Source of the DNA: Symmetrospora coprosmae
Taxonomy: Eukaryota > Basidiomycota > Cystobasidiomycetes > Symmetrosporaceae
Direction of reading: 5' to 3'
DNA length: 64,000 nt
NCBI GenBank assembly: GCA_008802785.1
Contig: VUYT01000025.1
Location: 62,001 to 126,000 of the forward strand
The notes beneath the pieces are model-generated. The model ran no database searches. It was not told where the DNA came from and saw nothing but the letters and a program-made list of their open reading frames with translations. Within the stretch, counting starts at the first letter, position 1. Each line of letters starts with the position of its first letter. Made by a program: the position numbers and the translations under genes. Of this stretch, positions 27,301 through 57,070 are shown in pieces.

Positions 27301-30181
27301 CGAAGGAGGAGAGCCCAGTCACGGCCAACGATGACAACGATGACAACGACGACGAAGAAGTAGCGGCCCGCGTTCTCCGTACCGCCGGCTCGACTGCATC
27401 TGAAGCGACTCCCGCGGAGGAAGATGACAAGGATCCAGTACTTTCAGCGCAGCAGGCGTCAGTTGAAGCGCCTGAGGCGATTGAGGATGCAGCCTTGAGG
27501 TCACTGGGTACACAGAGTGTACATGATGAAGTACTCCCCTCCAAGGCCGCGGCTAAGCAAGCCAAAGCCAACAACCTCTCCGCGAGCAAGAAGTACCGGG
27601 AAAACAGTCGTCTACGCATCTACTTCTCGACGCCCTTGGACGAATCTTCTTTGAACGCCAGCAGCAACACCAAAAAGGGCAAACAAGCGCAAGTGGAGCC
27701 TGTTCTGCCTGTAGCTCCTAAATCAACACGCGGGCAGAAGCGTCGGGCTAAGCTCGACCCGGATGCACTTCGCGCTCAGAGGGCAATGAGCGTTGAAAGC
27801 AGGATGTCACAGGCCGTGCCAGAGCCGGATGGCAGGAATGACGACGGTGCACAACCGGAAACTCCCGAGCTTGCCAAGTCTGCCGAAGGACTCACGTCGG
27901 AAGGCCCCGAAGCAGACGCTGGCGTTCAGACAGAAGCTGAGGCGGAGGCGGAGGCAGGCCGAAATGCAAACGGAGGGGAAGACGATCTTGACGGCGAGCC
28001 TCTGACAAGCGCAGCTCCGGTAGAAGATGATGATGGAGCGGATGAGGCGCCAGCCGTCGGGAATACCAGAGAGCCTATGGGCATGGTGCCGACCTCCTCG
28101 ACCTCACAAGCTGCCGCATCATCACCGCCACCCACTTCCGCCCAGACGATCGACATTCAAGGGGAGGCATCCGCAGTGGACAAGACCCACCTGGACCCCC
28201 CGAGCGACGACGCCGAGTTGGCGACTGCCGAGATCAGTGCGGCGACTACGACCGAGGCTGCGACCGCAAGAGGCGTAGAAGGTGAAATCAAAGACAGCAT
28301 GAAGGAAGAAGAAGATCTGGAGCCCACCGTTGACAACACCGAAGGAGATGTGCCACCGGCGACGCAATCGGCTCAGCCATCGGAGGATCGCGTGTCGATC
28401 TCGTACGCTCGAAACTCTCGGAGGATCGTGCTGGATGCCAGCGTAGTGGAGGAAATGGTCGTTCATCGAGCCGAAGGGAAGATCGAAATGAAGATCCGTC
28501 TTGCCCCCGTTGGCCTTGCAGAGCAGAAGGCTCGGATTTGCGCCGGAGTATACGTAAGTCCCGCAAGCAGAAGCAGGCATAGCCGCTGAATCACCGCTGA
28601 TGCGCTCCGCACCATACAGGTCGAGGTGTTGTCCCAAGGCAACAATGAGTTTAGCGAGGTCGACAGGGAAGGGCTGGCCGCATCTTGGCCGGAGAATACA
28701 AGTCGAGATGGCGTGCGCGACGCAACCGAAGACGCGGAGGATGCAAGCGTCAAAACAGAGCGGGAAGAGGAACAGGCTGAAGCTGCAGAGGGCAGCATTG
28801 CGGTCAGTGCAGCAGATGAGCTCCTGCCTCCGCTGCATCGTCTGCTGGTCGGAGGCGCAGGCTCGGCAGAAAAGCTGGAAGAGGACCAGGCTCCCGGCGA
28901 CTCGGCTACCACCGCGACCGCCTTCGTGCACGAAATCATCACGGTAGTAGCTCGGCTAGACCGAGCCAATCCCCTGACTGAAGCGAAGTGGGTACGGGCG
29001 GGGAATCCGGACGAATGGATCGAGTCCATCGCGGGCCCCGCCGGCGCCCTGGCTGCTGCTTCTGTGGGCCTCCGCCCGCAAGCGGGCAAGACCCCTAAAG
29101 GGGCGTCCTATCCCGCAATGCCGCTCAATGGCAGAGACGCCTCCAGCGAGTCCGCGGAAACCTCGGCTTGGAAAGGCAGAATCAAGGTCGCAGACCCAGA
29201 AGCAGTACGCCTTCTTTCCTTTCCTAAACCCCTGCCGCCTTCCTCCTTCGGGAACCAGGTATCGAGTGAAGGATTCGCAGCTTACACCGTGCCTCTCTGT
29301 TTCTTCCTGGTCTTGTTTCCTCTTGCGGCTGACTCGTCTTCTCCTCCGCCTGCGGTCAATCTCCCTCCGCCTCCGCGTCTATGCTCGGTTTCTGGCGCTG
29401 CTCTTGCTTTGATTTTCGGTCATTGCCTTTCCCCGCTCCACCTCCCGCCCTTCCTCCCGTTCCTGTCCCGTCCCCTGCCTTTGCACTACGTGCATCCACT
29501 TTCATCCTCAATGCCTGCTGTCCTGTCCGCTTCGCATTCCTCCTTACGCTCTCTCGTACGATATCCTCTCTCGCCACATCCGCACTTTCGTACAATGGCA
29601 CTCAGCCGCCTACCTTCCAACATGCACTCGAGAGCTGGCTGTCAACCTCTAATACGCGCTACGGGTTCGACGAGGCGCGGTATCGCTTCGTTTCGACGTA
29701 CTTCACGGACATCAACAATGTTCTCGAGGTGCTTCTGCGCCTCATGCGTGGCGGGACTGGGCCGGTCGCAAGTCAGGCGCATGGGTTTGGGCACGGGCAC
29801 GGGCACGGCGCGGCAGGGACGGGCGGAACTGCTACTGCCGGCGTGCCCTTTCCGGAGCAGCAGACGCCCGTCACTCTCGCGGCGTTCACGCTTTTCCGGC
29901 TCGGGCTCGATACGGCGCGAGGCGCGGGCCTGCCGACGGCCGACATTGAGCGGCGCGTTGGCGAAGTCGTCCGCACGCTCCCGTACGCCCTCGTGTTCCG
30001 CAGCCTCGACTCGATCTTTACCGACTACAAGCGGGCAAGTGGTGGAGGCGGCGGCGGTGGAGGAGGCAGCAGCGGTTCGAGTGGCAAGAAGTCACACGGC
30101 GGAAAATCGTTCCAGCCTCCAACGGGTCCGTCGCATCGAGGACCGGGAGGCTTCCAGAACACCAAGAGGCAGAGGAAGTGA
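24343..30181 (+). CDS. Very large Gln/Pro-rich disordered protein, function unknown
   Basis: Exons 24343-24630, 24735-28553, 28620-29204 and 29606-30181 give 1755 aa. Residues 1-300 are a prion-like Q/N/P/G-rich domain (MYNNNNPYS, polyP, QQQ runs, PPHKRARFDH nuclear-signal-like). Residues 300-650 are Ser/Pro/Gly-rich with RGG-like repeats (GGGRGGGRG, GRGGRGG). Ordered islands follow: TDFRIESLEIVELGWSWKAV at about 670, KKYRENSRLRIYFSTP at about 1050, VSISYARNSRRIVLDASVVEEM at about 1315 followed by KIEMKIRLAP, and a helical C-terminus (QHALESWLSTSN, YFTDINNVLEVLLRLM, AAFTLFRLGLDTARG, LVFRSLDSIFTDYK) ending in a Gly/Ser/Lys tail. Acidic repeats separate the islands. I recognise no named domain; the composition suggests a nuclear RNA- or chromatin-associated scaffold. 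The last intron (401 nt, pyrimidine-rich) is unusually long and its 3' site is the least certain join. Confidence 0.7.
24425..24449. repeat. (CCG)n codon repeat encoding polyproline
   Basis: Trinucleotide tract inside exon 1 of the Q/P-rich gene, flanked by CAG/CAA runs that encode glutamine. It is a likely site of length variation. Confidence 0.7.
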
Positions 30182-30604
30182 GCAGTGCGCTTGCTTCAGT
30201 CCAGCCGAAAAAAGCAAGCTACATCTTGCGCGGACGATCATCAAGGTGAGGTCGCTGCTTGATCGTATCATAGTCTCAGCCTTGCCAGCTTGTAGTGTAG
30301 ATATGTTCTAGCTGCTGCCTGCCTGCAGCAAGGCCAAGGGAGAAAAAGCAGCCCAATCGAGAGTGGACGAAACACGGGCAGATGGACTGTTGACACAATC
30401 GAAGAAAAGTAGTTCTCCCGCAGAGAGAACAGAAGCACTGTGGTTCCATCATGCGTAGACGAATACCAAGTACAGGACAGCGAAGACCTTGATCCCAGGG
30501 AGCCGCTCTAGTGCCGAGGGCACCCAGCCCATCTATACTATAAGGCTCCGGCCAGGTGAGCGCCCTCGCAGATCTGCCCAAAACTGATACCCTCCCGTCT
30601 CTGC
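30182..30604. other. Convergent intergenic region
   Basis: 423 bp between the stop of the Q/P-rich gene and the stop of the Rieske gene. It presumably holds both 3' UTRs. No RNA gene or conserved frame was seen. Confidence 0.45.
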
Positions 30605-43381: not shown

Positions 43382-45500
43382 ATGGCCACCCATTTGCTAT
43401 TTGAGAGCTCGGTCGGATATGCCCTCTTCTCGTGAGCGGGCGGATGATCAGGCTTCGAACGAGCATGCGCCGGGAGGGGTGCGAGGGGATCCCCCCTTTG
43501 CCTAGCAGCTCGGATGTGCGAGAGCGAGAGCGCTGATGCAGGGAGATTGCGTGTACTCATCTTACAGAGCCACCCTCCATGAGGAGATCGGCCAGAGGAG
43601 CAAGGCCGTCCAGGACCAGATCGCCGAGCTCTCGACTTTCGGCAAGATGGTCAAGCTCGAGTCCTTCGAGCCGTTCAAGTGAGTGCGGGCGGGCACGGAG
43701 TATGAGCCTCCCTCATCAGGCGCACTGGCTGACCGTTGCTTCTTGCATGTGCTCACAGAGACGCTGCTCACGCTCTCGAGAACGCCAACGATGTCTCGGA
43801 AGGTGTGTAACACTGGTACCTCCTAGCGCTTGTCGGCAGAGCACAACGCTAAAATCCCAAAGCTTCCACCCGCAGGTGTCGTCAATGACTACCTGAAGGC
43901 CATGCTCGAGCTAAAGCTCCCCGCCAAGAAGGCCAACGTCGTTCTCGGCGTGTCTGACCGACAGCTCGCGAGCAGCATCAAGGGCGGGCTCGGCATCAAC
44001 TGCGACACGTCCGAGCGCTCGCTCGAGCTCATCCGCGGGATCCGCCTGCACGCCGAAAAGCTGCTCAAAGGCCTCGAGACGGGCGACGTGTCGCGCGCCC
44101 AGCTCGGCCTGGGCCACGCCTACTCGCGCGGCAAAGTAAAGTTCAATGTCAACCGGTCCGACAACATGATCATCCAGGCCATTGCCCTCCTCGACCAGCT
44201 CGACAAGGACGTCAACACGTTTGCCATGCGCGTCCGCGAGTGGTACGGCTGGCACTTCCCAGAGCTCTACAAGATTGTACCCGACAACTACCAGTACGCG
44301 CGCTGCGTCGGCCTCATCCAGGACAAGAACAACCTGCGCGACAAGGAAAAGGAGGACGACTACGTCTCGTCGCTCACCGACATGCTCGACGCAGACTCGA
44401 CGCGCGCAAAGAACGTCGTCGACGCGGCGCGCGCGTCCATGGGCACGGACATTGCACCCATCGACCTGCTCAACGTCATCAACTTTGCAGAGCGCGTCAT
44501 CAACCTCTTTGCGTACCGCAAGTCGCTCCAGATCTACCTCAACGAAAAGATGTCGCTCGTCGCGCCCAACCTCGGCGCCCTCATCGGCGACACTGTCGCT
44601 GCCCGCCTCATTTCGCACGCCGGCTCGCTCACCAACCTGTCAAAATACCCGGCCAGCACGGTGCAGATTCTCGGTGCAGAGAAGGCACTCTTCCGAGCAC
44701 TCAAGACAAAGGGCAACACGCCCAAGTACGGTTTGATCTACAACGTGGGTTGTTTTGTTCACTCCTCTTCCTCGGCCTAGAAGGTCTCGTTCTGACAGTT
44801 CTTGCTTCCACCGAACTTGCAGTCCACCTTTATCGGCCGCGCGGCGAGCAAGAACAAGGGACGCATCTCGCGGTTCCTCGCAAACAAGTGCTCGATCGCC
44901 TCGCGCATCGACTGCTTCTCGGACGCACCGACAACCAAATTCGGCGAGGCGCTGCGGGCGCAGGTCGACGAGCGGTTGGCCTTTTACGAGACGGGCTCGC
45001 AGCCGACCAAGAACAGCGCGGCCATGTCTGCGGTGCTCGACGTGCTGCGGAAGGAGGCGGCCGACGGCGCCGTCGTCGAGGTCGAAGCCGAGGCGGACGT
45101 GAGCAGGAAGGACAAGAAGGACAAGAAGAGCAAGAAGCGCAAGTCCGAGGCGGTCGAGCCCATGGAGGGCGTCGTCGTCAACGACGAGGAGGTCGCGCTC
45201 GAGCCGGCAGAGAAGAAGGTCAAGAAGAGCAAAAAGAGCAAGGTCTCGGACGTCCCGGGCGCACCCCTGTCAGCGGCTGCGCCCGCAGAGACGACGGCGG
45301 ACATTTCGATGGCCGACGTCAACCCGGACGCTAGCACGGCGGAGAAGAAGCAGAAGAAGAAGGACAAGAAGAAGAAGGCGGATGCGGAGGCTATTGCTGC
45401 GCCGTCAACGGCCGAAATGACGGTGGACCCGGTTGAAGTCGACACGAGCGTGGTCAAGAAGCAAAAGAAGGAGAAGAAGGAGAAGAAGGCCAAGGCATAA
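43382..45500 (+). CDS. NOP56: Box C/D snoRNP core protein NOP56
   Basis: Exons 43382-43431, 43568-43678, 43760-43802, 43875-44744 and 44823-45500 give 583 aa. The N-terminus ([17 protein letters not shown]) and the [15 protein letters not shown] block match NOP56. The Nop domain contains [38 protein letters not shown] and the RNA-binding signature [19 protein letters not shown] followed by [19 protein letters not shown]. The [20 protein letters not shown] block follows, then a Lys/Glu/Asp-rich nucleolar tail of about 160 residues with KKDKK and KKSKKSK repeats. NOP56 pairs with NOP58 and fibrillarin in rRNA 2'-O-methylation and early pre-rRNA processing. The WYGWHFPEL motif separates it from NOP58. 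The first four exon joins all use GTGAGT/GTGTGT-type donors with an ACAG or GCAG acceptor. Confidence 0.96.
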
Positions 45501-46285: not shown

Positions 46286-47758
46286 ATGTTCTCTTCGACC
46301 ACTTCCCTCGCAGCCGCGGCGCTCTCGGCACTCACACTCTTTCAGCAAGCCTCCGCTGCGCCTTTGATCGCCCGCGGCTCCACCAATGACGGCTGCGCTC
46401 TCGGCTCGTACCGCCCCACCTCATCGGGCTCCTGCGCCCCTCTGAACTCCTGCGTCTTCCTCAAAACGACTGGCCTGGCAAAGGTCGTCGCTACCGTGAC
46501 CGGCCTCGTCAAAATTGACGCCAATGCCGTCCTCGACCTCGCTGCCAATGCGTGTGTGTCGCTCGACACCTGTACCGCGGTCAAGACGCGCGAGGCCGCC
46601 GTCAGCTCCGTCGCCGGTTGGTCCGGGGTTCGTGTCTGCCAGGTCAAGACGTGCCGCGGCGTCTCTGTTCTCGTGAGTCGACTCGCCTCTAGCATGGTCT
46701 CTTACTTTGAACACGACTGACGAGTGCGCTTCTGCACGCAGAACATCGACACGGGCATCTGCGAGTGCCCCTCGAGCCACGTCTGGAACGCCGACAAGAC
46801 TGTTTGCGTCGAGAAGAACAAGTGCCACGCAGGTACCGTCTGGGCGCCTTCCCCCTCGGCTTGCGTCGCTGTCGACCTCTGCGCCAAGCAGAACGGCGGT
46901 CTCTGCGAGCTGCTCAGGGACGTCGGCAAGGTCGTCGGCGGTGTGGTCGGCGGCACTGTGAACGTTGTTGGAACAGCGCTGGCAGGCATTGAGGCGACCG
47001 TCAAGGCGACCCTTGCAGCGCTCGCCAAGGTCGTCATCACCCTCGATGCCGACACCAAGGCCGCTCTCCACACCTCGGTCAACCTCTGCCTCGACGCCAT
47101 CGCCAACATCCGGGCACAGCTCCAGGCCGAGGTCTTTGTCAAAGTCGAGGCATCTCTTGACGTTGCTGTCAAGGCCGTCGCCGACCTGCAGGCCAAGCTT
47201 GCCGCATCTGCTGTCCAGCTCGACGCCGACCTCCACGTCGCCCTCGTCGCGGCAGTCAAGGCGTGTGCCGTCCTCGAGGCTGAGGTCACCGCACAGGTCA
47301 ACGCTGCCGTCCACACTTCTCTCCACCTCGCCGTCCAGGCCCTCGCCGACGTCCGAGCCAAACTCGTCGTCTACTTCCTCGCCACCGTCCAGACCTCGAC
47401 CAACATTGCCGTCAAGGCTGTCGCCGACGCGCAGGTCCTCATCGACGGCACGACGCTCTTCGTCGAGGCGTCCATCAAGGCGTCCGCCAAGGCTGCCGCG
47501 TCGGCCGTGCTCGAGCTCAATGCCTACATCTCGGTCATTGAGGCACAGGGCAAGGCAGACGGGCACGCTACCATCGCTGCTGCCCTCTCCGCATGCGCCG
47601 ACCTCCAGGCTCGAGTCGAGGCCGACGTCGTCCTGAAGGCCAACGTGGCCCTCAAGACCACCATCGAGACCGCCCTCCAGGCGCTCGCAAAGGTTCAGGC
47701 ATCCGTTGCTACCGATGCCGACCTCCTCGTCCTGGCTGGCATCACCTCGCATGCGTAG
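46286..47758 (+). CDS. Secreted protein: Cys-rich head and Ala/Val amphipathic repeats
   Basis: Exons 46286-46672 and 46742-47758 give 467 aa. A clear signal peptide (SSTTSLAAAALSALTLFQQASA, cut before APLIAR) is followed by about 195 residues with roughly 15 cysteines, spaced as short Cys-rich modules (GCALGSYRPTSSGSC, CQVKTC, CECPSSHVW, KCHAGTVWAPSPSAC). Residues from about 210 to the end form degenerate repeats of about 26-29 residues recognisable by the core AVKAVADLQAKL, AVQALADVRAKL, ALSACADLQARV and ALQALAKVQASV. These look like long amphipathic helices. No membrane anchor or GPI signal is evident. I recognise no named family. A cell-surface, wall-binding or surface-active role is possible but is inference. 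TATA box and CT-rich leader suggest strong expression. Confidence 0.8.
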
Positions 47759-48172
47759 TGCCCTTCCTCCGTCTCTTTTCGCTTTGCTCTGCTGCCTTTC
47801 TCTGCCTCCCGGGGGTCACTGTTAGATTAAGTTGGATGTAGTGCCCATGTTCTCTAGGAAGTCTGCCGTCTGGTAATTGACTAGTCTATGACACGCCACT
47901 ACCTTTGATGTCGTCCGAGCTGCAGCAAGAGACTGCAGCAAGAGGGGCTAACATCTGCAGTGCAGCCTGACTCAGCGACAAGTTGACCAGTGGCACTATA
48001 CCAGGATCATCAGGCATGCCCAATGCGAACATCAGCACAGGCCACAGCTGCGGACCCAGTCTCGTCAAAACGGCCCAATGCAATCGTGAAGCTCGAACAG
48101 CAGGCATTGCAAGAGCTCAGATGTTCCAGGACGCAGTAAGGTAGATGCGCAACTACCAGGTGCAGGCGAGAC
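47759..48172. other. Convergent intergenic region
   Basis: 414 bp, visibly less GC-rich than the flanking genes. It presumably holds 3' UTRs. I see no coding frame or RNA gene. Confidence 0.4.
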
Positions 48173-48823
48173 CTACTTGAAGTGCCGCACGCCAGAGAAG
48201 CTCCAAGCGCAAACGTTGAGGCCGATGATCGCGTCATTGGGCCACATCTTGTGATTCGTCACGTTGTCGATCACCATGTTGCACTGAATGATCTCCTTCG
48301 CATGTTTCTCCTGGGCCGACTTCGCCAGCTGCTGCTTGAGTTCCGCCTTGTCAAGATCGGTCATCGGAACATCGACGTGCAGATTGCCGTTAGCGAATGA
48401 TCCTCCAGATCTCAAGATGCTGCCTTTGCTCTTGTGCAGGGTGGCTACAAAGTGGTCCCCCTTTTTCCATCGGAACTCGGGAGGTACCTGTGGCAGTCCT
48501 GGCGTAGCGACGGCAGGTGTGGTACCGGTAGGGCGGCTCGGACGCTTGGCTGCCGCGTTCTCCTCCTGGCTGCAACGAGACGTGATTCCACCACTACTTT
48601 TGGGAACCTGACCAGGTCCCTGCGCCTGCTTGGGTCGACGCGGGTTCCCTCCAGTGCCCGCGGCATCCTGGCTGGAGCGTGGGGTGGTGTGCGCAGAGAA
48701 CGCGCTCGGATGTCGCTTCAGCACTGCAGGGACTGTGTTTTCGGAGCTTCTGTTGCCGGAGGTCTTGGTTGGACCAGACGAGCCGCTGCGAGAATGACGG
48801 ACATCTGGCGACGGTGTGGGCAT
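48173..48823 (-). CDS. Unknown protein, paralogue A of a local pair
   Basis: Single-exon frame of 216 aa. Residues 1-115 are Ser/Pro/Thr/basic and disordered (SGSSGPTKTSGNRSS). Residues about 116-214 form a compact domain beginning FRWKKGDHFVATL, continuing GNLHVDVPMTDLDKAEL and ending IIGLNVCAWSF. This domain aligns without large gaps with the gene at 49610-50023: W-(K/R)2-G-x2-F-x-ATL, then G-x-L-x-V-x2-PM, D-(K)A-x-L, a Q-x-x-x-VI strand and a final V-x-x-W. I know no family with this pattern. A TATA-like ATATTTAAG lies about 75 bp upstream. No signal peptide or membrane helix. The conserved domain and its duplicate make real coding likely despite the AT-richer context. Confidence 0.6.
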   Translation of the reverse strand: MPTPSPDVRHSRSGSSGPTKTSGNRSSENTVPAVLKRHPSAFSAHTTPRSSQDAAGTGGNPRRPKQAQGPGQVPKSSGGITSRCSQEENAAAKRPSRPTGTTPAVATPGLPQVPPEFRWKKGDHFVATLHKSKGSILRSGGSFANGNLHVDVPMTDLDKAELKQQLAKSAQEKHAKEIIQCNMVIDNVTNHKMWPNDAIIGLNVCAWSFSGVRHFK

Positions 48824-49609
48824 GCTGCAGAGTGTGTCGAACCTTGAGTTGCGGTAATAGTAACGCTTTGATATTGTAGGGCGTGTCCAAGATGCTTAAA
48901 TATGAGGGAGTAGAGCCTTGTCAACCGTCGTGAGCTGTATTTATTGCTTTTGCCCGGCGCCACCAGCAGGCGATTTGCACCGCAGGTCACTTGCAGCTCG
49001 GTTGCACAGCTAAAGAGTAGTGGCAAACCGTTCGCCTTTGATCACTTCTACGTGTGAAGAACGGATCAGGAGCTCGCCCGCAGACCACCATGCCACTATT
49101 GCCGAATCTCTGTATACGTTGTTCGAAGGCCTCCGCATCTTGTGTCATCTCCGTAACATCAGATGCTTTGACAAGCGCGTGTACGTCCAGTTGAGTAGAT
49201 TGCGCGCATCTGCCACCTGAACATTGACATATGAGGCCGAAGCGCAGTAGAACCTTTGAGTCCCGGTATAGCGCCCGGACCAAAACTTCAAGGGGGTCCA
49301 GACAGAGCTGCTCCAAGTGAGGGATTGCGACACCACGCGGGACATGCTGGAGTCGCCAGCTGCAGTGGAGGTGTCAACCGTCGGGGGAGAAACCCGACGA
49401 GAGAATCGAATATCGCCAGCGGGAATCACATGCGTTCAGTCTCTATCACCACGGCTCCACACCAGCAACCGAGTTCCAACGTAGTCCGAGTGTAGATAGG
49501 CACCGAATGCAAAATGGACGACAAACTTGATGCGACCGTCTAAACTGTTGCGATCAGTTAACATTGAGAGGTTAAAAAATGCCGGTCAACAGTGAGTCTG
49601 CGTCATCGA
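48824..49609. other. Gene-poor spacer between the two paralogues
   Basis: 786 bp. On the minus strand it contains a 94-codon frame (49145-49429, with SSVWTPLKFWSG and YVNVQVADARN) and an overlapping 109-codon frame (48987-49316). Either could be the remains of a third copy, since SS-x-W ... KF ... VQV..DA has a counterpart in the 49610-50023 protein, but similarity is weak and I do not call a gene. Confidence 0.4.
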
Positions 49610-50023
49610 CTAGCTTGTCGCGATGATGCTATTGATTCGCCACGACACGACCATGACTCCGTCGGCCTGGCGAGTCTCCGAATTTGAAAAAAGCTCCCGG
49701 CTGATTACAGCGCACTCAACTTGGACGCTCTTGCGACCCTGCAGATTCTTCGAGTATGTAAGATCGTGAATTTCTTTCATGAGAGCCGCTTTGTTGTCCG
49801 CATCCATGGGTGCATAAACTTGCAGACGGCCGCGTGACCACGAAGGCAGGTGGAGCTTGCCACGGTGACCTCGGGCAAGGGTTGCGTAGAATTTGGTGCC
49901 GCGACGCCAGTCGCTGCTGCCAATCAGAGGAGCCGGCTGAGCACCCTGACCGCCAGCAGGGTTTCGTCCACCGCTGTTGCGCTGCTGCGTGAAGCTGGTG
50001 CGAGGCGAGTTACCCGTTGACAT
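49610..50023 (-). CDS. Unknown protein, paralogue B of a local pair
   Basis: Single-exon frame of 137 aa. A short disordered head (MSTGNSPRTSFTQQRNSGG) leads into the domain shared with the 48173-48823 protein: SSDWRRGTKFYATLARG, GRLQVYAPMDADNKAALM, SVQVECAVISRELF and GVMVVSWRI. The head is about 80 residues shorter than in copy A. A TATA-like ATATATA at 50164-50170 stands about 140 bp upstream of the start. No signal peptide, membrane segment or known catalytic motif. Both copies lie on the same strand about 0.8 kb apart, consistent with an old tandem duplication followed by strong divergence. Function unknown. Confidence 0.6.
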   Translation of the reverse strand: MSTGNSPRTSFTQQRNSGGRNPAGGQGAQPAPLIGSSDWRRGTKFYATLARGHRGKLHLPSWSRGRLQVYAPMDADNKAALMKEIHDLTYSKNLQGRKSVQVECAVISRELFSNSETRQADGVMVVSWRINSIIATS

Positions 50024-50369
50024 TGTCGATTGGCTGTTGCAGCGTGCTCTGGAGAGGGTAAGCGAGATATATGGATGGATAGATGTAGTGTAGGATTAAT
50101 TGATGTAGAGTAGCGGTGTAGTGAGGAAAGAAGAGAGCGAGGGATGTCGGAGCAGGGGGGCGCATATATAGATTTTGGCGGCTTTGACACCGCCCTGATC
50201 TTTCCGCTGTGCGCTCCGGACAAGGGACTGGTATGGTCAATGGGCCGAAGACCTGGGGTGTCTGTTGCGGCGATGCAAGGACGCAGTAAGAGCATCAGCA
50301 GTGCCGAGCAACGGCATCGGGTAGCCAAACAGCGTTGATGACATTGGCTGCTGCCCTTCTGACAGGACG
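50024..50369. promoter_or_regulatory. Promoter of paralogue B and 3' flank of SND2-like gene
   Basis: 346 bp, AT-richer than average. The TATA-like element at 50164-50170 is the only recognisable signal. Confidence 0.4.
50164..50170 (-). promoter_or_regulatory. TATA-like element of paralogue B
   Basis: ATATATA about 140 bp upstream of the ATG at 50023. It is among the few TATA-like sequences in the window. Confidence 0.4.
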
Positions 50370-51122
50370 TCATGACTGTGGTCTCTGGTGCATCTGATAT
50401 CGTTTGTCGCCCTTTTCGTAGCGTGCCTGCATCTTTTGCTGTCGCTTGGACATGCCTTCCTTTGCCTTTGCGGCTGCAGCCTGTTCCTGCTGCTGCTGCT
50501 GCTGCCGGTGTCCCGCAGCAGATGCGCCTTTGCTCCCAAATATGAAAGGGCTGGCGATGTTGATGATCTTGTAGAGTGCGTATGAGGGGATCTGAGAAAC
50601 GACAGCGATGGCACGTAGTCAGCGGGCATGTGGAAGTGGGCCCGCCGCGCGCAGCAAGACTGATGAGATTGCACCCCACCAACGTGTACAGCCACCAGCC
50701 TTTACTCCAGACGAGGCCAAAGAGCTGGGCCGCCCATGTGACGTAGATGACATCCTGCATGTACTGAGTGAGGCCCGGCTGGGTGAGGTCGGCTCCTGCC
50801 GAGACGAGGGCGCCGGAGCTCGAGTACTTTGGCGATGCCATGCCATAGAGCTGCTGCGTGAAGAAGAGCGAAGGGAGGGAGGTGAAGAGGTAGAGGAGGA
50901 GGTGTGCGCGGGTGCGCTGCCTGGCCGAGACGGCAAAGAGGAGGAGCTGGAGGAGCTGCGCGCGAAGGGTGGAGCACGGGCGTCGGAACTGGAGCTTCCA
51001 GCGACAGTGACAGCGCCATCCCCATCGCGCGCACCCACCTGCGTCAATGCAGTCCCTGCGAGCAGGAGCGTCCTCGTCGATGCATTCTCTGCTGCGATCC
51101 TCTTGTCTGATTTGTTGGCCAT
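50370..51122 (-). CDS. SND2: TMEM208/SND2-like ER membrane protein
   Basis: Exons 51122-51039, 50994-50680 and 50591-50370 give 206 aa. The family start MANKSDKRIAAEN is followed by two membrane hairpins (LLQLLLFAVSA, then LLLYLFTSLPSLFFTQQLYG), the conserved PKYSSSGALVSAGADLTQPGLTQYMQDVIYVTW block with its YMQDVIYVTW core, and WSKGWWLYTLIPSYALYKI. The C-terminus is a Gln/Ala/Lys-rich cytosolic tail (QQQQQQEQAAAAKAK). Fungal members (Snd2/Env10) act in SRP-independent targeting of proteins with central or C-terminal membrane segments to the ER. The long minus-strand frame crossing this locus is a read-through of the introns, not a larger protein. The polyQ tail is encoded by a CTG/CAG run near 50493-50510. 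Confidence 0.85.
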
Positions 51123-51191
51123 GGTTGCCGAGCCGAGCAGAGTCTACAATCCCGGTCAACCGAGGTCAAGCACCGGGGTCAAGCGTGCTGG

Positions 51192-51254
51192 ATTACCCCT
51201 ATTCTCGTTCGCATTACCCCTATTCTCGCTCGGACTAACCCCGATTAACCCCGA
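51192..51254. repeat. Two short tandem repeats in a divergent promoter
   Basis: ATTACCCCTATTCTCG occurs at 51192-51207 and 51213-51228 (21-nt period). TAACCCCGA occurs at 51236-51244 and 51246-51254 (10-nt period). Both sit in the 294-bp interval between the SND2-like and ENP2 start codons and look like paired protein-binding sites. Confidence 0.55.
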
Positions 51255-51416
51255 CGGGGTAAGGGAGAAATCAGAGGCAAGCCCAGGCTCAGGCTCAGGC
51301 TCACCTTTACAGCAACCACCACCTCGCCAGCCAGCTGCCGACACTACGGGCATATCACAAGCAAGGTCACTGTTGTTGTTGTCGTCGTGTGCTCTCCTTA
51401 GGCTTCAGCACCGGGC

Positions 51417-54216
51417 ATGGTCGTCAATCTCGCCTCGACGGGCTCCAATGTGGGTGGCAAATGTCGATGGACCAAGCGTCCAACCCGACCACCATCAGCA
51501 GCACCGTCTGAAGCAAGCCAAGCTGACACTGTGCTCCACTCAATCCGACATCCGATGTCCGACCACAGGCACGCTGCTACATTGTCAACGGCGGAGGGCA
51601 GACCGTCCCAGACTGGCTCGCGGCAAAGAAGAAAGGCGAACGCCGCCGGAAAAAGACAGAGGAAGGGCAGGGCATTCGCCTGATACAGGTGTGTGTGTCT
51701 TTCGAGGATGGGCTCGCAGCTATGCGCCGGGAGATACTCGTCTTCCATCCTCATGCTGATGCGACCCATGCACGCATGTTCCGCAGGACTTTGACTTCCC
51801 CGAAGCTAGCAACAAGATCAAGACGACACGCGATGGCCAGTTCTGTCTCGCTACCGGCACCTACAAGCCGCGCATGAAGATTTTCGACCTCCTCGAGCTC
51901 GGCTTAAAGTCGGAGCGCGTCACCGACTCGGAGAATGTCGACTTCTGCATCCTGTCGGACGACTGGACAAAAACGCTGCACCTCCAGGCAGACCGGAGTC
52001 TGTCCGTGCACACTGCCTCGTCCGAGTTCTACTCGACTCGCATACCGACACATGGCAGGAGCCTGGCATACCACTTCCCGTCCTGCGATGCAGTCGTCGG
52101 AGCGAGCGGCAACCAGATCTACCGCTTGAACCTGGACCAGGGCAGGTTCCTCAATCCGTTAGAGTGCCAGTCCACCGTCTCGGGAGTGAATGCACTCGAT
52201 ATCAATCCTGCACATGGCCTGCTGTCTGCGGGGACAGAGTCAGAGGACCAGGGTCTACCGGGAACCGTGGAGTTCTGGGATTTGCGGATGCGCAACAGGG
52301 CGGGTGTCCTGCAGCTTCCGTCTGCACAATCCCTTGGAGTGGCTAGTACCTCTTTCGATGGCTTGGATCACACCGCAAATCCACTGTCCGTGACATGCCT
52401 TTCGTCGCGTGACGATGGCCTCAACATGGCTGTCGGCACCTCGACGGGCCATACCCTCCTTTACGACCTCCGCTCATCGACACCTTACACTGTCAAAGAT
52501 CAGGGATACGGCCTGCCCATAAAGTCGATACAATGGGTCAACAGCTCGGCGGCTTCCACTTCGCTAGCAGATGAGGCCGGAGGGCTGGTCGCCTCGGTTG
52601 ACAGCAAGGTGCTCAAGATCTGGGGAGCGCAATCCGGCCAGAACCTCATCTCCATCAACCCGCCCAGCAACATCAACGACCTCCACGTATTCCCAGACAC
52701 CGGCCTGGTCTTCCTGGCGAATGAAGCGAGTCCCATCACGGGATACTACATCCCGCAGCTGGGCAATGCTCCCAAGTGGGCGCGCTTCCTCGACAACATG
52801 ACCGAAGAGCTGGAGCAAGACTCTGTCGAGACGCTGTACGACGACTACAAGTTCGTCGACCGGCAGGAGCTGCGCACGCTGGGCATGGAGCACCTCATCG
52901 GGACCAACACGCTCAAGCCCTACATGCACGGCTTCTTTGTCGACCTGCGCCTGTACACCAAGGCGCGGGCCATCGCCAACCCTTTCGCATACGCAGAGTA
53001 CCGCGACCGCCTCATCCGCGAAAAGCTCGAGAAGGAGCGCGAGTCGCGCATCCGCACGAGCAAAACGACCTCGCTGTCCCGGAAGGAGCGCGAGCGCCTC
53101 GCAGAGCTGCAGCAGACCATCGACGAAGCCAAGGTCAACAAGGGCCTCGCGCTGCGGATACAAGAACGCGAGGAGAAGGAGGAGAAGGCAAAGGCGCGCA
53201 AGGAGGCAAAGAAAAAGGCGCGGGCCGCTGCTGCCAGCGGCGCAGACGTACCCGTAGAAGCGGAAGAGGACGAGGAGGATGCCGAATCGGAGCAGGAGGA
53301 GGAGGTCAAGCAGGGTGGCAAGGCCGAGCCGCGCTCCGTGCTCACCGACTCTCGATTCAAGACCCTCTTCACCGATCCAGAATTTCAGGTGGACGAGGAC
53401 TCGCTCGAGTTTGCCATGCTCAACCCTTCAACTGCTGCTCGGCGGCAGAACGAGCCCAAGGATCGCCAGCGCATCGTCGCTAGCGACCTTATGGACGGCG
53501 GCGAGGAAGACGAAGAGGAAGGCAGTGAGGGCGATGATGATGACGACGCTAGCGACGGGGACTCGGACAGCTCGGGCGATCTCGGGCAATTCGACCCGAG
53601 GACGGCCAAGGGCAAACAGAGACAGGCACCGGGCGAAGTCGATGCACGCACTGGCAAGCGAAAAGCTCCGAATCAAATGCGAGAGAGGGAGGCGCTCAAG
53701 CTTGCCCGGCAGCAGAGGAAGCAGGAGCGTGCTTCCGGTGCGCCAACCTACCGCCCGCGCTTGGTCGTCGATGGCGATGCCGCCGAGGCAGCGTCACCTG
53801 GCAGCGCAGCGGCATCTGGCAGCCAGACCTTCGGGCAGAGAGCGCACACTGCGCTATCCGGCAAAGCTGGACGGCAGGGCCGCGCGGTCCCGCGAGGCTC
53901 CAAGCTCAGCTCGGCAGCAGACGAAGGCGTCCTGCGCTCGACGCCCGGCGGAGGCATGGAGTACTCGTTTGTGCCGAGCACGACCGAAGCGCAGGACGCG
54001 GCGGACGAGAAGCGCATGATGAACAAGCAGCGCATGGAGAAGCAGGCCACCGATACGCTGAATAACGCCCGGATGGGCGCAGGGCTCGAGCGCGACGACA
54101 GCAAGAGCGAGAATGCACGCATGCGCCTCGAGCTGAGCGAGGCCGAGCGCACGGGTCGCACGGGTCGGAGAAGGGAGATCAGATCTGCGAGCCGGAACAA
54201 GACGCGGATGTTGTAG
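51417..54216 (+). CDS. ENP2: SSU-processome protein ENP2/NOL10
   Basis: Exons 51417-51449, 51569-51688 and 51787-54216 give 860 aa. The first exon holds only 11 codons (MVVNLASTGSN). The second gives YIVNGGGQTVPDWLAAKKK, matching the PxWL..KKK motif of NOL10. The third starts DFDFPEASNKIK and carries LATGTYKPRMKIFDL, then WD-type blades (PSCDAVVGASGNQIYRLNL, GTVEFWDLRMRNRAG, GHTLLYDLRSS, VLKIWGAQSG), the ENP2 middle (FVDRQELRTLGMEHLIG), a charged coiled coil at about 430-490, the NUC153 motif (DSRFKTLFTDPEFQVDEDS) and an acidic/basic tail. ENP2 is required for 18S rRNA maturation in the nucleolus. Upstream lie the paired repeats at 51192-51254. Confidence 0.93.
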
Positions 54217-55430: not shown

Positions 55431-57070
55431 TCAATATTGCGTCAGAGGTGACACGGTCGCTTGCGGAGGCGTATCCCCTGAAATGTCGCGGGCATTGCTC
55501 GCAGTTGAATTGGCTTCTGCCTCCTCGTCCCTCTCTTCCGCCTCGAAACCTTCCTCGCAGGTCTCGCCTTCAAGCTCGGCCTGCTGTCCACCATCACGTT
55601 CTTCCGGCGTAAGGCCACCCGCGATGTCAGCTTGCTCTCTTGCCTCCTTCCGCTTCTGCTTCCGGCTCTTGTCGTCAAACTTGCGTTTGGGAATTACGTC
55701 AAAAAACGCCTTCTCCCAGTCACGGTATTGTATCCTGTGCAGCAAAGCTATCGGTCATGCGCATAGACGTAGCCTAATCAGACTCGATCGCGCTCACCAC
55801 CGGCTCATGATCTCGAAACATTGGTTGACCGTCAAAACTCTGCGCGAAGCCATCTCCACGTACTGCCCGATGGGCAGCGCAGCGTGCCGAATCTTGTGCT
55901 CCTTTGCGATCCCAAGGCAGAGGTTCTAGGTGCATGGGGTATATGGCGAAGTCAGAACGTGGCCCGCGAGCCGATCACTTGATACGAGCAACAGCCCACC
56001 TTGTACTGATTGTGGTCGACGATGCCGCCAATGATGTACGTCTTGTCCTCTTCTAGCTCCGTGAGAGTATTCTCCGAGTCCGCTGTCAGGTAGATAACGC
56101 TACTCTGGTCGATCTGTGGTACCGGAGGCTCCCCTCGATTTTCTGTAGGTGTCGTCCCGGACAGAGCACTCGTGCTGGCTTCCATGTTGCCTGTTGTAGC
56201 ATCTCCCGCCGCTTGCACATTGTCGCCCGTTGAGGTGGTCGCTGCATCTTTTGTCGCAGGACTCGTGCTGTCCGGCGGGTGTGACCATAGCGCCTGGATG
56301 GGCACTTCTAGCGTTCGTATCCGCTTCCATCGAAGATAGTCGCGGTTGTTAAGGGCGTCCATCCGCTCGCGCAGCTGCCCTTTGAGAGGCGTCATGATGA
56401 TGTCTACGGGGCCGGTGGCATTGCGATTGACGTTGTAAAGGTGCGCCAGCTGGGTCGACATCGATTTGATGTCCTGTGTGCGCAAGGTCAAAGCAAGGCA
56501 AAGCGGCGTTGGATCAGCAGAAGACGCACGCAGACTACGGATGAATCCACACAGCGGCATCCGTCTGCACACCTTGAGCGCCATCTTGTCGTCAAAGCTG
56601 AGGTCGATGACGACCTTTGCGCCGAAGGGCTGCCTCGGTTCCTCGAGCTTGCGCTTCTTCAGCCCGAGCTCGACCGGATCCGCCCCTTCCTCATTGACCA
56701 AGCGGCGCTTCTCTGCGCGCTTTGCTTTCTTTCCTTCTCGCTCGCGTGCACGTCGTGCAGGCCGCTCGGCCTCGGCTTTGGCGCGTCGGGCGAGCTTCTT
56801 CTGCATGTTCTTGCTCATTGCGGGCACGGCGGCCGCGTCTTCGCTGCCGCCCGCTGTTGATGCGCCGCCTGCGTGAATGACTGAAGCATCTGCAGTGGCA
56901 TTGCGCGCTCCGGCAGTATCGTCTGCAGCCGGTACCCCATCCTCGTGTGCCCCGACGCTTCCGCTCGCTTTCAAGTCTATCGACGGAGCCGTCATCTGTA
57001 CCGGTACTGCATCCTGAGGCAAAGCCACGGCGTCACCGCTTCCGTCCGACAGACCGCTCATCGAAGCCAT
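55431..57070 (-). CDS. TRM10: tRNA (guanine-N1-)-methyltransferase TRM10
   Basis: Exons 57070-56573, 56473-56000, 55925-55798 and 55734-55431 give 467 aa. After about 85 disordered residues comes a basic helix (SKNMQKKLARRAKAEAERPARR) and the SPOUT domain: AKVVIDLSFDDKMALKDIKSM, then QLAHLYNVNRNA, VIYLTADSENTLTELEEDKTYIIGGIVDHNQYK, the trefoil-knot region GIAKEHKIRHAALPIGQYVEM and LTVNQCFEIMSRW. The C-terminal tail is acidic. TRM10 methylates N1 of guanosine 9 in tRNAs using SAM. A Thr/Ser/Pro insertion of about 55 residues lies between ALWSHPP and DQSSVIYL. The conserved GIVDHNQYKN is split by an intron, and joining the exons restores it. Start ATG 57070, with 57061 as alternative. Confidence 0.94.

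What the first reader, a model, noticed from the sequence alone, without database searches (positions are those of the whole stretch)
48173..50023. Diverged tandem pair encoding an unrecognised domain
Two same-strand single-exon genes 0.8 kb apart share a domain of about 95 residues: W-(K/R)2-G-x2-F-x-ATL at the start, G-x-L-x-V-x2-PM in the middle, then a Q-x-x-x-VI strand and a final V-x-x-W. Their disordered heads differ completely in length. I know no family with this pattern. The pair sits in the least gene-dense, AT-richer part of the window next to a secreted-protein gene, a setting often seen for lineage-specific fungal genes. This is the best candidate here for an undescribed gene family.
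Basis: partly seen in the sequence, partly recalled or inferred. Interest (0 to 1): 0.72.

Follow-up and report, generated by a model that had tools for sequence, protein, structure and literature searches.

The report
Two diverged neighbouring orphan fungal genes
Two neighbouring short genes in what looks like a fungal genome code for basic proteins that share a distantly related domain of about 95 residues matching no family in the libraries searched: a real but so far anonymous duplicated gene pair, of an ordinary kind.

Summary
On the minus strand, 48173-48823 (A, 216 aa) and 49610-50023 (B, 137 aa) are intact open frames 786 bp apart with gene-like codon usage. Their C-terminal ~100 residues are more alike than chance: BLASTP E 6e-6; local score 62, shuffled mean 24.8, 0 of 5000 shuffles as high. 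The first ~37 domain residues (W-[KR]2-G ... PM) carry most of the signal; the last 47-50 are weakly supported when held in register (19 of 10000). No DNA-level similarity remains, so the split is probably old.

Searches of Pfam, NCBIfam, PHROGs, PDB sequences, viral contigs, prokaryote contigs and phages gave nothing above noise. No third copy turned up in the 20-Mb genome, but that search was too insensitive: neither member finds the other. No fungal collection was available, so 'undescribed family' is neither shown nor refuted. Both structure predictions failed (mean pLDDT 42).

Best reading: an old tandem duplication of a small, basic, probably intracellular binding protein with a beta-beta-alpha-beta-beta-like domain. 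The function is only weakly inferred. Orphan paralogues without known domains are common in fungi, so interest is modest.

The parts
48173..48823 (-). Gene A: single open frame, 216 aa, basic (pI 10.2), low-complexity head of 117 aa
48176..48472 (-). Shared domain of A, 99 aa
49610..50023 (-). Gene B: single open frame, 137 aa, basic (pI 10.7), low-complexity head of 37 aa
49613..49912 (-). Shared domain of B, 100 aa
48895..48903 (-). AT-rich TATA-like stretch (ATATTTAAG) about 72 nt before the ATG of A; role inferred
   Evidence: read; no test of significance
50163..50170 (-). TATATATG, TATA-box-like, 140 nt before the ATG of B; role inferred

Best explanation
The two genes arose by an old tandem duplication of one short intron-less gene (inferred from position, strand and shared domain). 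Each makes a small, strongly basic protein without a signal-peptide-like start (by eye): a low-complexity, probably disordered head of free length and a C-terminal domain of about 95 residues, probably beta-beta-alpha-beta-beta. Selection on the protein is inferred to have kept the domain core (W-[KR]2-G-x2-F-x-ATL, G-x-L-x-V-x2-PM and the helix after it), while DNA similarity and heads were lost. The most likely job, inferred only from charge, size and layout, is binding inside the cell: the domain binds a nucleic acid or protein partner and the basic head adds unspecific affinity, with the two copies acting as partners or as alternatives under separate promoters. Gene-pair part about 0.9; functional part about 0.25. 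Binding, location and division of labour are not shown.
For: Pair score above all 5000 shuffles, BLASTP E 6e-6. Both frames score like genes, 0.164 and 0.120 bits per codon, with all five other frames negative for each; 0 and 1 of 230 wrong-frame pieces reach them. No DNA-level match (best E 2.4); codon positions 1, 2, 3 agree in 36, 51 and 26 of 95 columns. Same strand, 786 bp apart. Basic composition and low-complexity heads. Propensity pattern strand-strand-helix-strand-strand roughly in both; both poor AlphaFold models place a strand at G-x-L-x-V and a helix after PM.
Against: Unrelated real protein pieces reach 62 in 2 of 1829 pairs, and A reaches 54 against one piece. With the first, impure training set one of 23 spurious nested ORFs scored as high as 0.143, above A (0.130) and B (0.141). 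The codon-position pattern is partly circular, because the alignment was made on protein. Structure models are unusable (mean pLDDT 42.0 and 41.9). No transcript data, no orthologue, and no direct evidence for binding.
Confidence: 0.6

Rival explanations
1. The domain belongs to a known fungal or eukaryotic family and looks orphan only because both members have diverged beyond detection by single sequences or a two-sequence profile.
For: Only two very different sequences were available as query; the own-genome search fails to link A with B. Divergence past recognition, eased by duplication, is a stated source of orphan genes (PMC12684174, passages).
Against: No Pfam model above noise (best E 0.19 for domain B and 3.8 for A); no PDB sequence for the profile.
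Confidence: 0.35
2. One or both frames are not genes, and the resemblance is a chance match picked out of many ORF pairs.
For: 2 of 1829 unrelated piece pairs score as high; impure-training result; no transcripts seen.
Against: 0 of 5000 shuffles; codon usage; the match is spread over the domain and supported in the last part as well.
Confidence: 0.07
3. The pair is a two-gene segment that moved in as one piece, bounded by a 13-bp target-site-like repeat.
For: AGGACGCAGTAAG occurs at 48128-48140 and 50278-50290, on either side of the pair, and nowhere else in 20.05 Mb; the segment between is AT-rich.
Against: 12 exact repeats of at least 13 nt and 300-3000 bp apart, this one included, occur in the 64-kb window, several of them low-complexity. 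No inverted repeat at the ends, no second copy of the segment, and no transposase was seen. Noticed after the fact.
Confidence: 0.05

Closest known systems
Species-specific paralogue groups among orphan genes of smut fungi (PMC5897528, passages seen)
   Same: Paralogues without a recognised domain; 7 to 82 unique groups in each of the nine genome columns of its table
   Different: Not known whether the present pair is species-specific, nor whether this genome is a smut; no sequence comparison was possible
PHROGs phrog_5224 and phrog_38253 (unknown function)
   Same: Borderline matches to the C-terminal parts, E 0.008 (domain B) and 0.0089 (domain A)
   Different: Each member matches a different family; one of two reversed decoys scores E 0.036 against a third family; taken as chance
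Ubiquitin-like beta-grasp fold (recalled)
   Same: Strand, strand, helix order at the start of the domain (propensities; poor models)
   Different: No sequence similarity: 1835 and 1893 of 2000 shuffles of ubiquitin score at least as well

Membership tests
Tandem paralogue pair | Adjacent genes on the same strand | tested here: met
   48173-48823 and 49610-50023, both minus, 786 bp apart
Tandem paralogue pair | Protein similarity above chance | tested here: met
   0 of 5000 shuffles reach the score; BLASTP E 6e-6; but 2 of 1829 unrelated piece pairs do
Tandem paralogue pair | Both copies expressed | not testable with these tools
   No RNA data; codon usage only
Lineage-specific (orphan) gene family | No homologue outside one lineage | tested here: inconclusive
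   None in the libraries and collections held, but no fungal collection was searchable
Lineage-specific (orphan) gene family | Homologues in related species or more copies | tested here: inconclusive
   No third copy by protein or codon patterns; search insensitive, only part of the pattern matches fetched
Ubiquitin-like beta-grasp | Sequence similarity to ubiquitin | tested here: not met
   Scores 19 and 18, below the shuffled means
Ubiquitin-like beta-grasp | Beta-grasp fold | tested here: inconclusive
   Models too poor, mean pLDDT 42.0 and 41.9
Small secreted fungal effector | N-terminal signal peptide | tested here: inconclusive
   By eye none: the heads are polar and low-complexity; no signal-peptide program was available

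The most novel reading that the evidence does not exclude
The pair defines an undescribed domain family, possibly with its own fold, confined to one fungal lineage and kept as two diverged copies that work as an obligate pair.
Probability: 0.2. Interest if true: 0.45.

Novelty: new member of a known kind. Interest (0 to 1): 0.27.

Why it matters
If orthologues exist, the aligned domain is a seed for a new family model, and the pair is a clean case of an old duplicate kept without recognisable relatives. By itself it is one more anonymous fungal gene pair.

Tried and rejected
A decayed third copy between the genes (48824-49609): by eye some frames looked similar, but a frameshift-tolerant alignment of the minus strand scored 28 (query A) and 26 (query B) against a background mean of 29.3 for either query over 76 segments. 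A profile search of the 1376 stop-free stretches of at least 25 aa in the window found only the two members, next best E 1.6. Codon usage there is not gene-like. Rejected.

Third copies elsewhere in the genome, by codon patterns (all counts include A and B). W-[KR]2-G-x2-F-x-ATL with up to 2 mismatches: 34 places, backward control 26; 30 of the 34 became loci. G-x-L-x-V-x2-PM exact: 12 places, control 11, all 12 became loci; with up to 1 mismatch: 438 places, control 424, of which 30 became loci, the 12 exact ones and 18 others. A looser W..G..[FY].A pattern: 4 places, control 3. The fetched loci were compared with both domains by alignment and tblastn (47 loci) and by profile (69 loci); translations around the motif were printed for some of them only. 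Apart from the pair, the best were L046 at E 0.18 by profile and 0.042 by tblastn, and L042 at 1.8 and 0.09; both had been picked for the motif, so these values flatter them. Taken as chance, not disproved. Domain B was not searched on its own in the genome, only as the whole protein.

Match of A to contig C8 (E 0.009): residues 2-73, low-complexity head only. Rejected.

Structure search: not run, because both models were below mean pLDDT 43. Rfam over 47700-50600: none at E up to 1. Shared sequence in 300 nt upstream or 252 nt downstream of A and B: only 7-nt matches.

Coding test: the training set held 14 ORFs, at least two of them spurious in my view (46421-47752 minus, 50608-51759 plus). 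One search uses 12: those two and 29118-30311 were dropped and 43902-44780 added. Most of the 12 are assumed, not shown, to be genes.

Full report
What is there. The minus strand of 48173-50023 holds two intact open frames of 216 (A) and 137 (B) codons, 786 bp apart. Both start codons have A at -3. Eight neighbouring ORFs were scanned with Pfam and four matched at E up to 0.01: a Nop domain (ORF at 43902, plus), TMEM208_SND2 (minus, matched part near 50.7-50.8 kb), NOL10 domains (ORF at 51874, plus) and a tRNA m1G methyltransferase (ORF at 55952, minus). Exact gene limits and introns are my reading. At 46286 a plus-strand frame begins with a signal-peptide-like leader, by eye. The window lies in a 20.05-Mb genome of 77 contigs. 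That it is a fungus, probably a basidiomycete, is inferred from gene content, size and GC and comes from no call.

Are they genes? Codon usage was trained on 12 long ORFs of the window, with their other five frames as background. A scores 0.164 and B 0.120 bits per codon; all five other frames are negative for each. Of 230 wrong-frame pieces of 137 codons, 0 reach A and 1 reaches B. Of 46 true-frame pieces, 39% score no higher than A and 28% no higher than B. In A the domain (0.295) scores far better than the head (0.052). In an earlier version with a less pure training set, the best of 23 spurious nested ORFs (0.143) slightly exceeded A (0.130) and B (0.141), so codon usage is supportive, not proof. 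The stretch between the genes has no comparable stop-free signal.

Are they related? BLASTP gives E 6e-6 for the whole proteins; that alignment includes part of the heads. Domain against domain, the local score is 62 (shuffled mean 24.8, sd 4.5, maximum 59; 0 of 5000) and the end-free global score 53 (mean 10.9, sd 5.1, maximum 36; 0 of 5000). The first 36-37 residues alone beat all 5000 shuffles (47 against a maximum of 42). The rest does not with free ends (905 of 5000), but does when aligned end to end (74 of 10000 with the same gap costs, 52 with lower ones; last 47-50 residues 19 of 10000). The cut points came from the alignment under test, so these last figures are generous. Unrelated protein pieces reach 62 in 2 of 1829 pairs, so homology is well supported but not beyond doubt; adjacency and strand add to it. 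At DNA level nothing significant remains (best E 2.4), and codon positions 1, 2 and 3 agree in 36, 51 and 26 of 95 columns.

What kind of protein? Both are basic (pI 10.2 and 10.7); the heads consist to 59% and 73% of S, P, G, T, N and Q. A simple propensity calculation suggests roughly strand, strand, helix, strand, strand in both domains. AlphaFold with the two-sequence alignment failed in both orders (mean pLDDT 42.0 and 41.9); common to both models are the strand at G-x-L-x-V and the helix after PM. The order recalls ubiquitin-like folds, but sequence gives no support.

Relatives. Pfam: best E 3.8 for A, none for B as a whole protein, 0.19 for domain B. NCBIfam: none. PDB sequences: five rows at E 0.41 to 2.1 for A, none for B or for the profile. 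PHROGs: E 0.0089 and 0.008 for domains A and B, to different families; a reversed decoy gave 0.036 with a third family. phrog_5224 has no match in this genome. Viral contigs: none confirmed of 30, 7 and 3 pattern matches; prokaryote contigs: none of 21. Phages: none for B, one row at E 0.5 for domain A. Own genome: no further copy by protein or among the pattern loci examined; not all pattern matches were fetched. The protein search of the genome does not connect A with B even at E up to 10, so these negatives are weak.

Surroundings. TATAWAWR matches four times in the window (three places, one palindromic; 0.54 expected), once 140 nt before the ATG of B. A 13-bp direct repeat brackets the pair and is found nowhere else in the genome, but the window holds 12 repeats of at least that length at comparable distances, this one included. 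I do not build on it.

Literature. In the nine genome columns of one comparison of smut fungi, 201 to 1186 orphan genes and 7 to 82 unique paralogue groups were counted, most of the species-specific proteins lacking a conserved domain (PMC5897528, passages). A review of fungal and animal orphan genes names divergence helped by duplication as one source, and cites work in Neurospora that ascribes lineage-specific genes to duplication, relocation and rearrangement (PMC12684174, passages). Of other papers I saw only the listings of two searches. Neither search was aimed at this domain, so I make no claim about whether it is in print.

Verdict. A real, probably old tandem gene pair with a shared domain of unknown family: ordinary in kind, open in function.

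Noticed in passing
48128-48140 and 50278-50290: Exact 13-bp direct repeat AGGACGCAGTAAG on either side of the gene pair, its only two occurrences in the 20.05-Mb genome; 12 such repeats of at least 13 nt exist in the window.
   Followed up: partly
46286-47759 (+): Gene with a signal-peptide-like leader, apparently with one intron near 46672-46741, whose second exon encodes a long A/V/L/K/D-rich repetitive stretch; its first-exon ORF has no Pfam match. Gene model by eye.
   Followed up: no
51192-51232: Two 21-nt tandem units ATTACCCCTATTCTCGCTCGC between the divergent SND2 and NOL10 genes.
   Followed up: no
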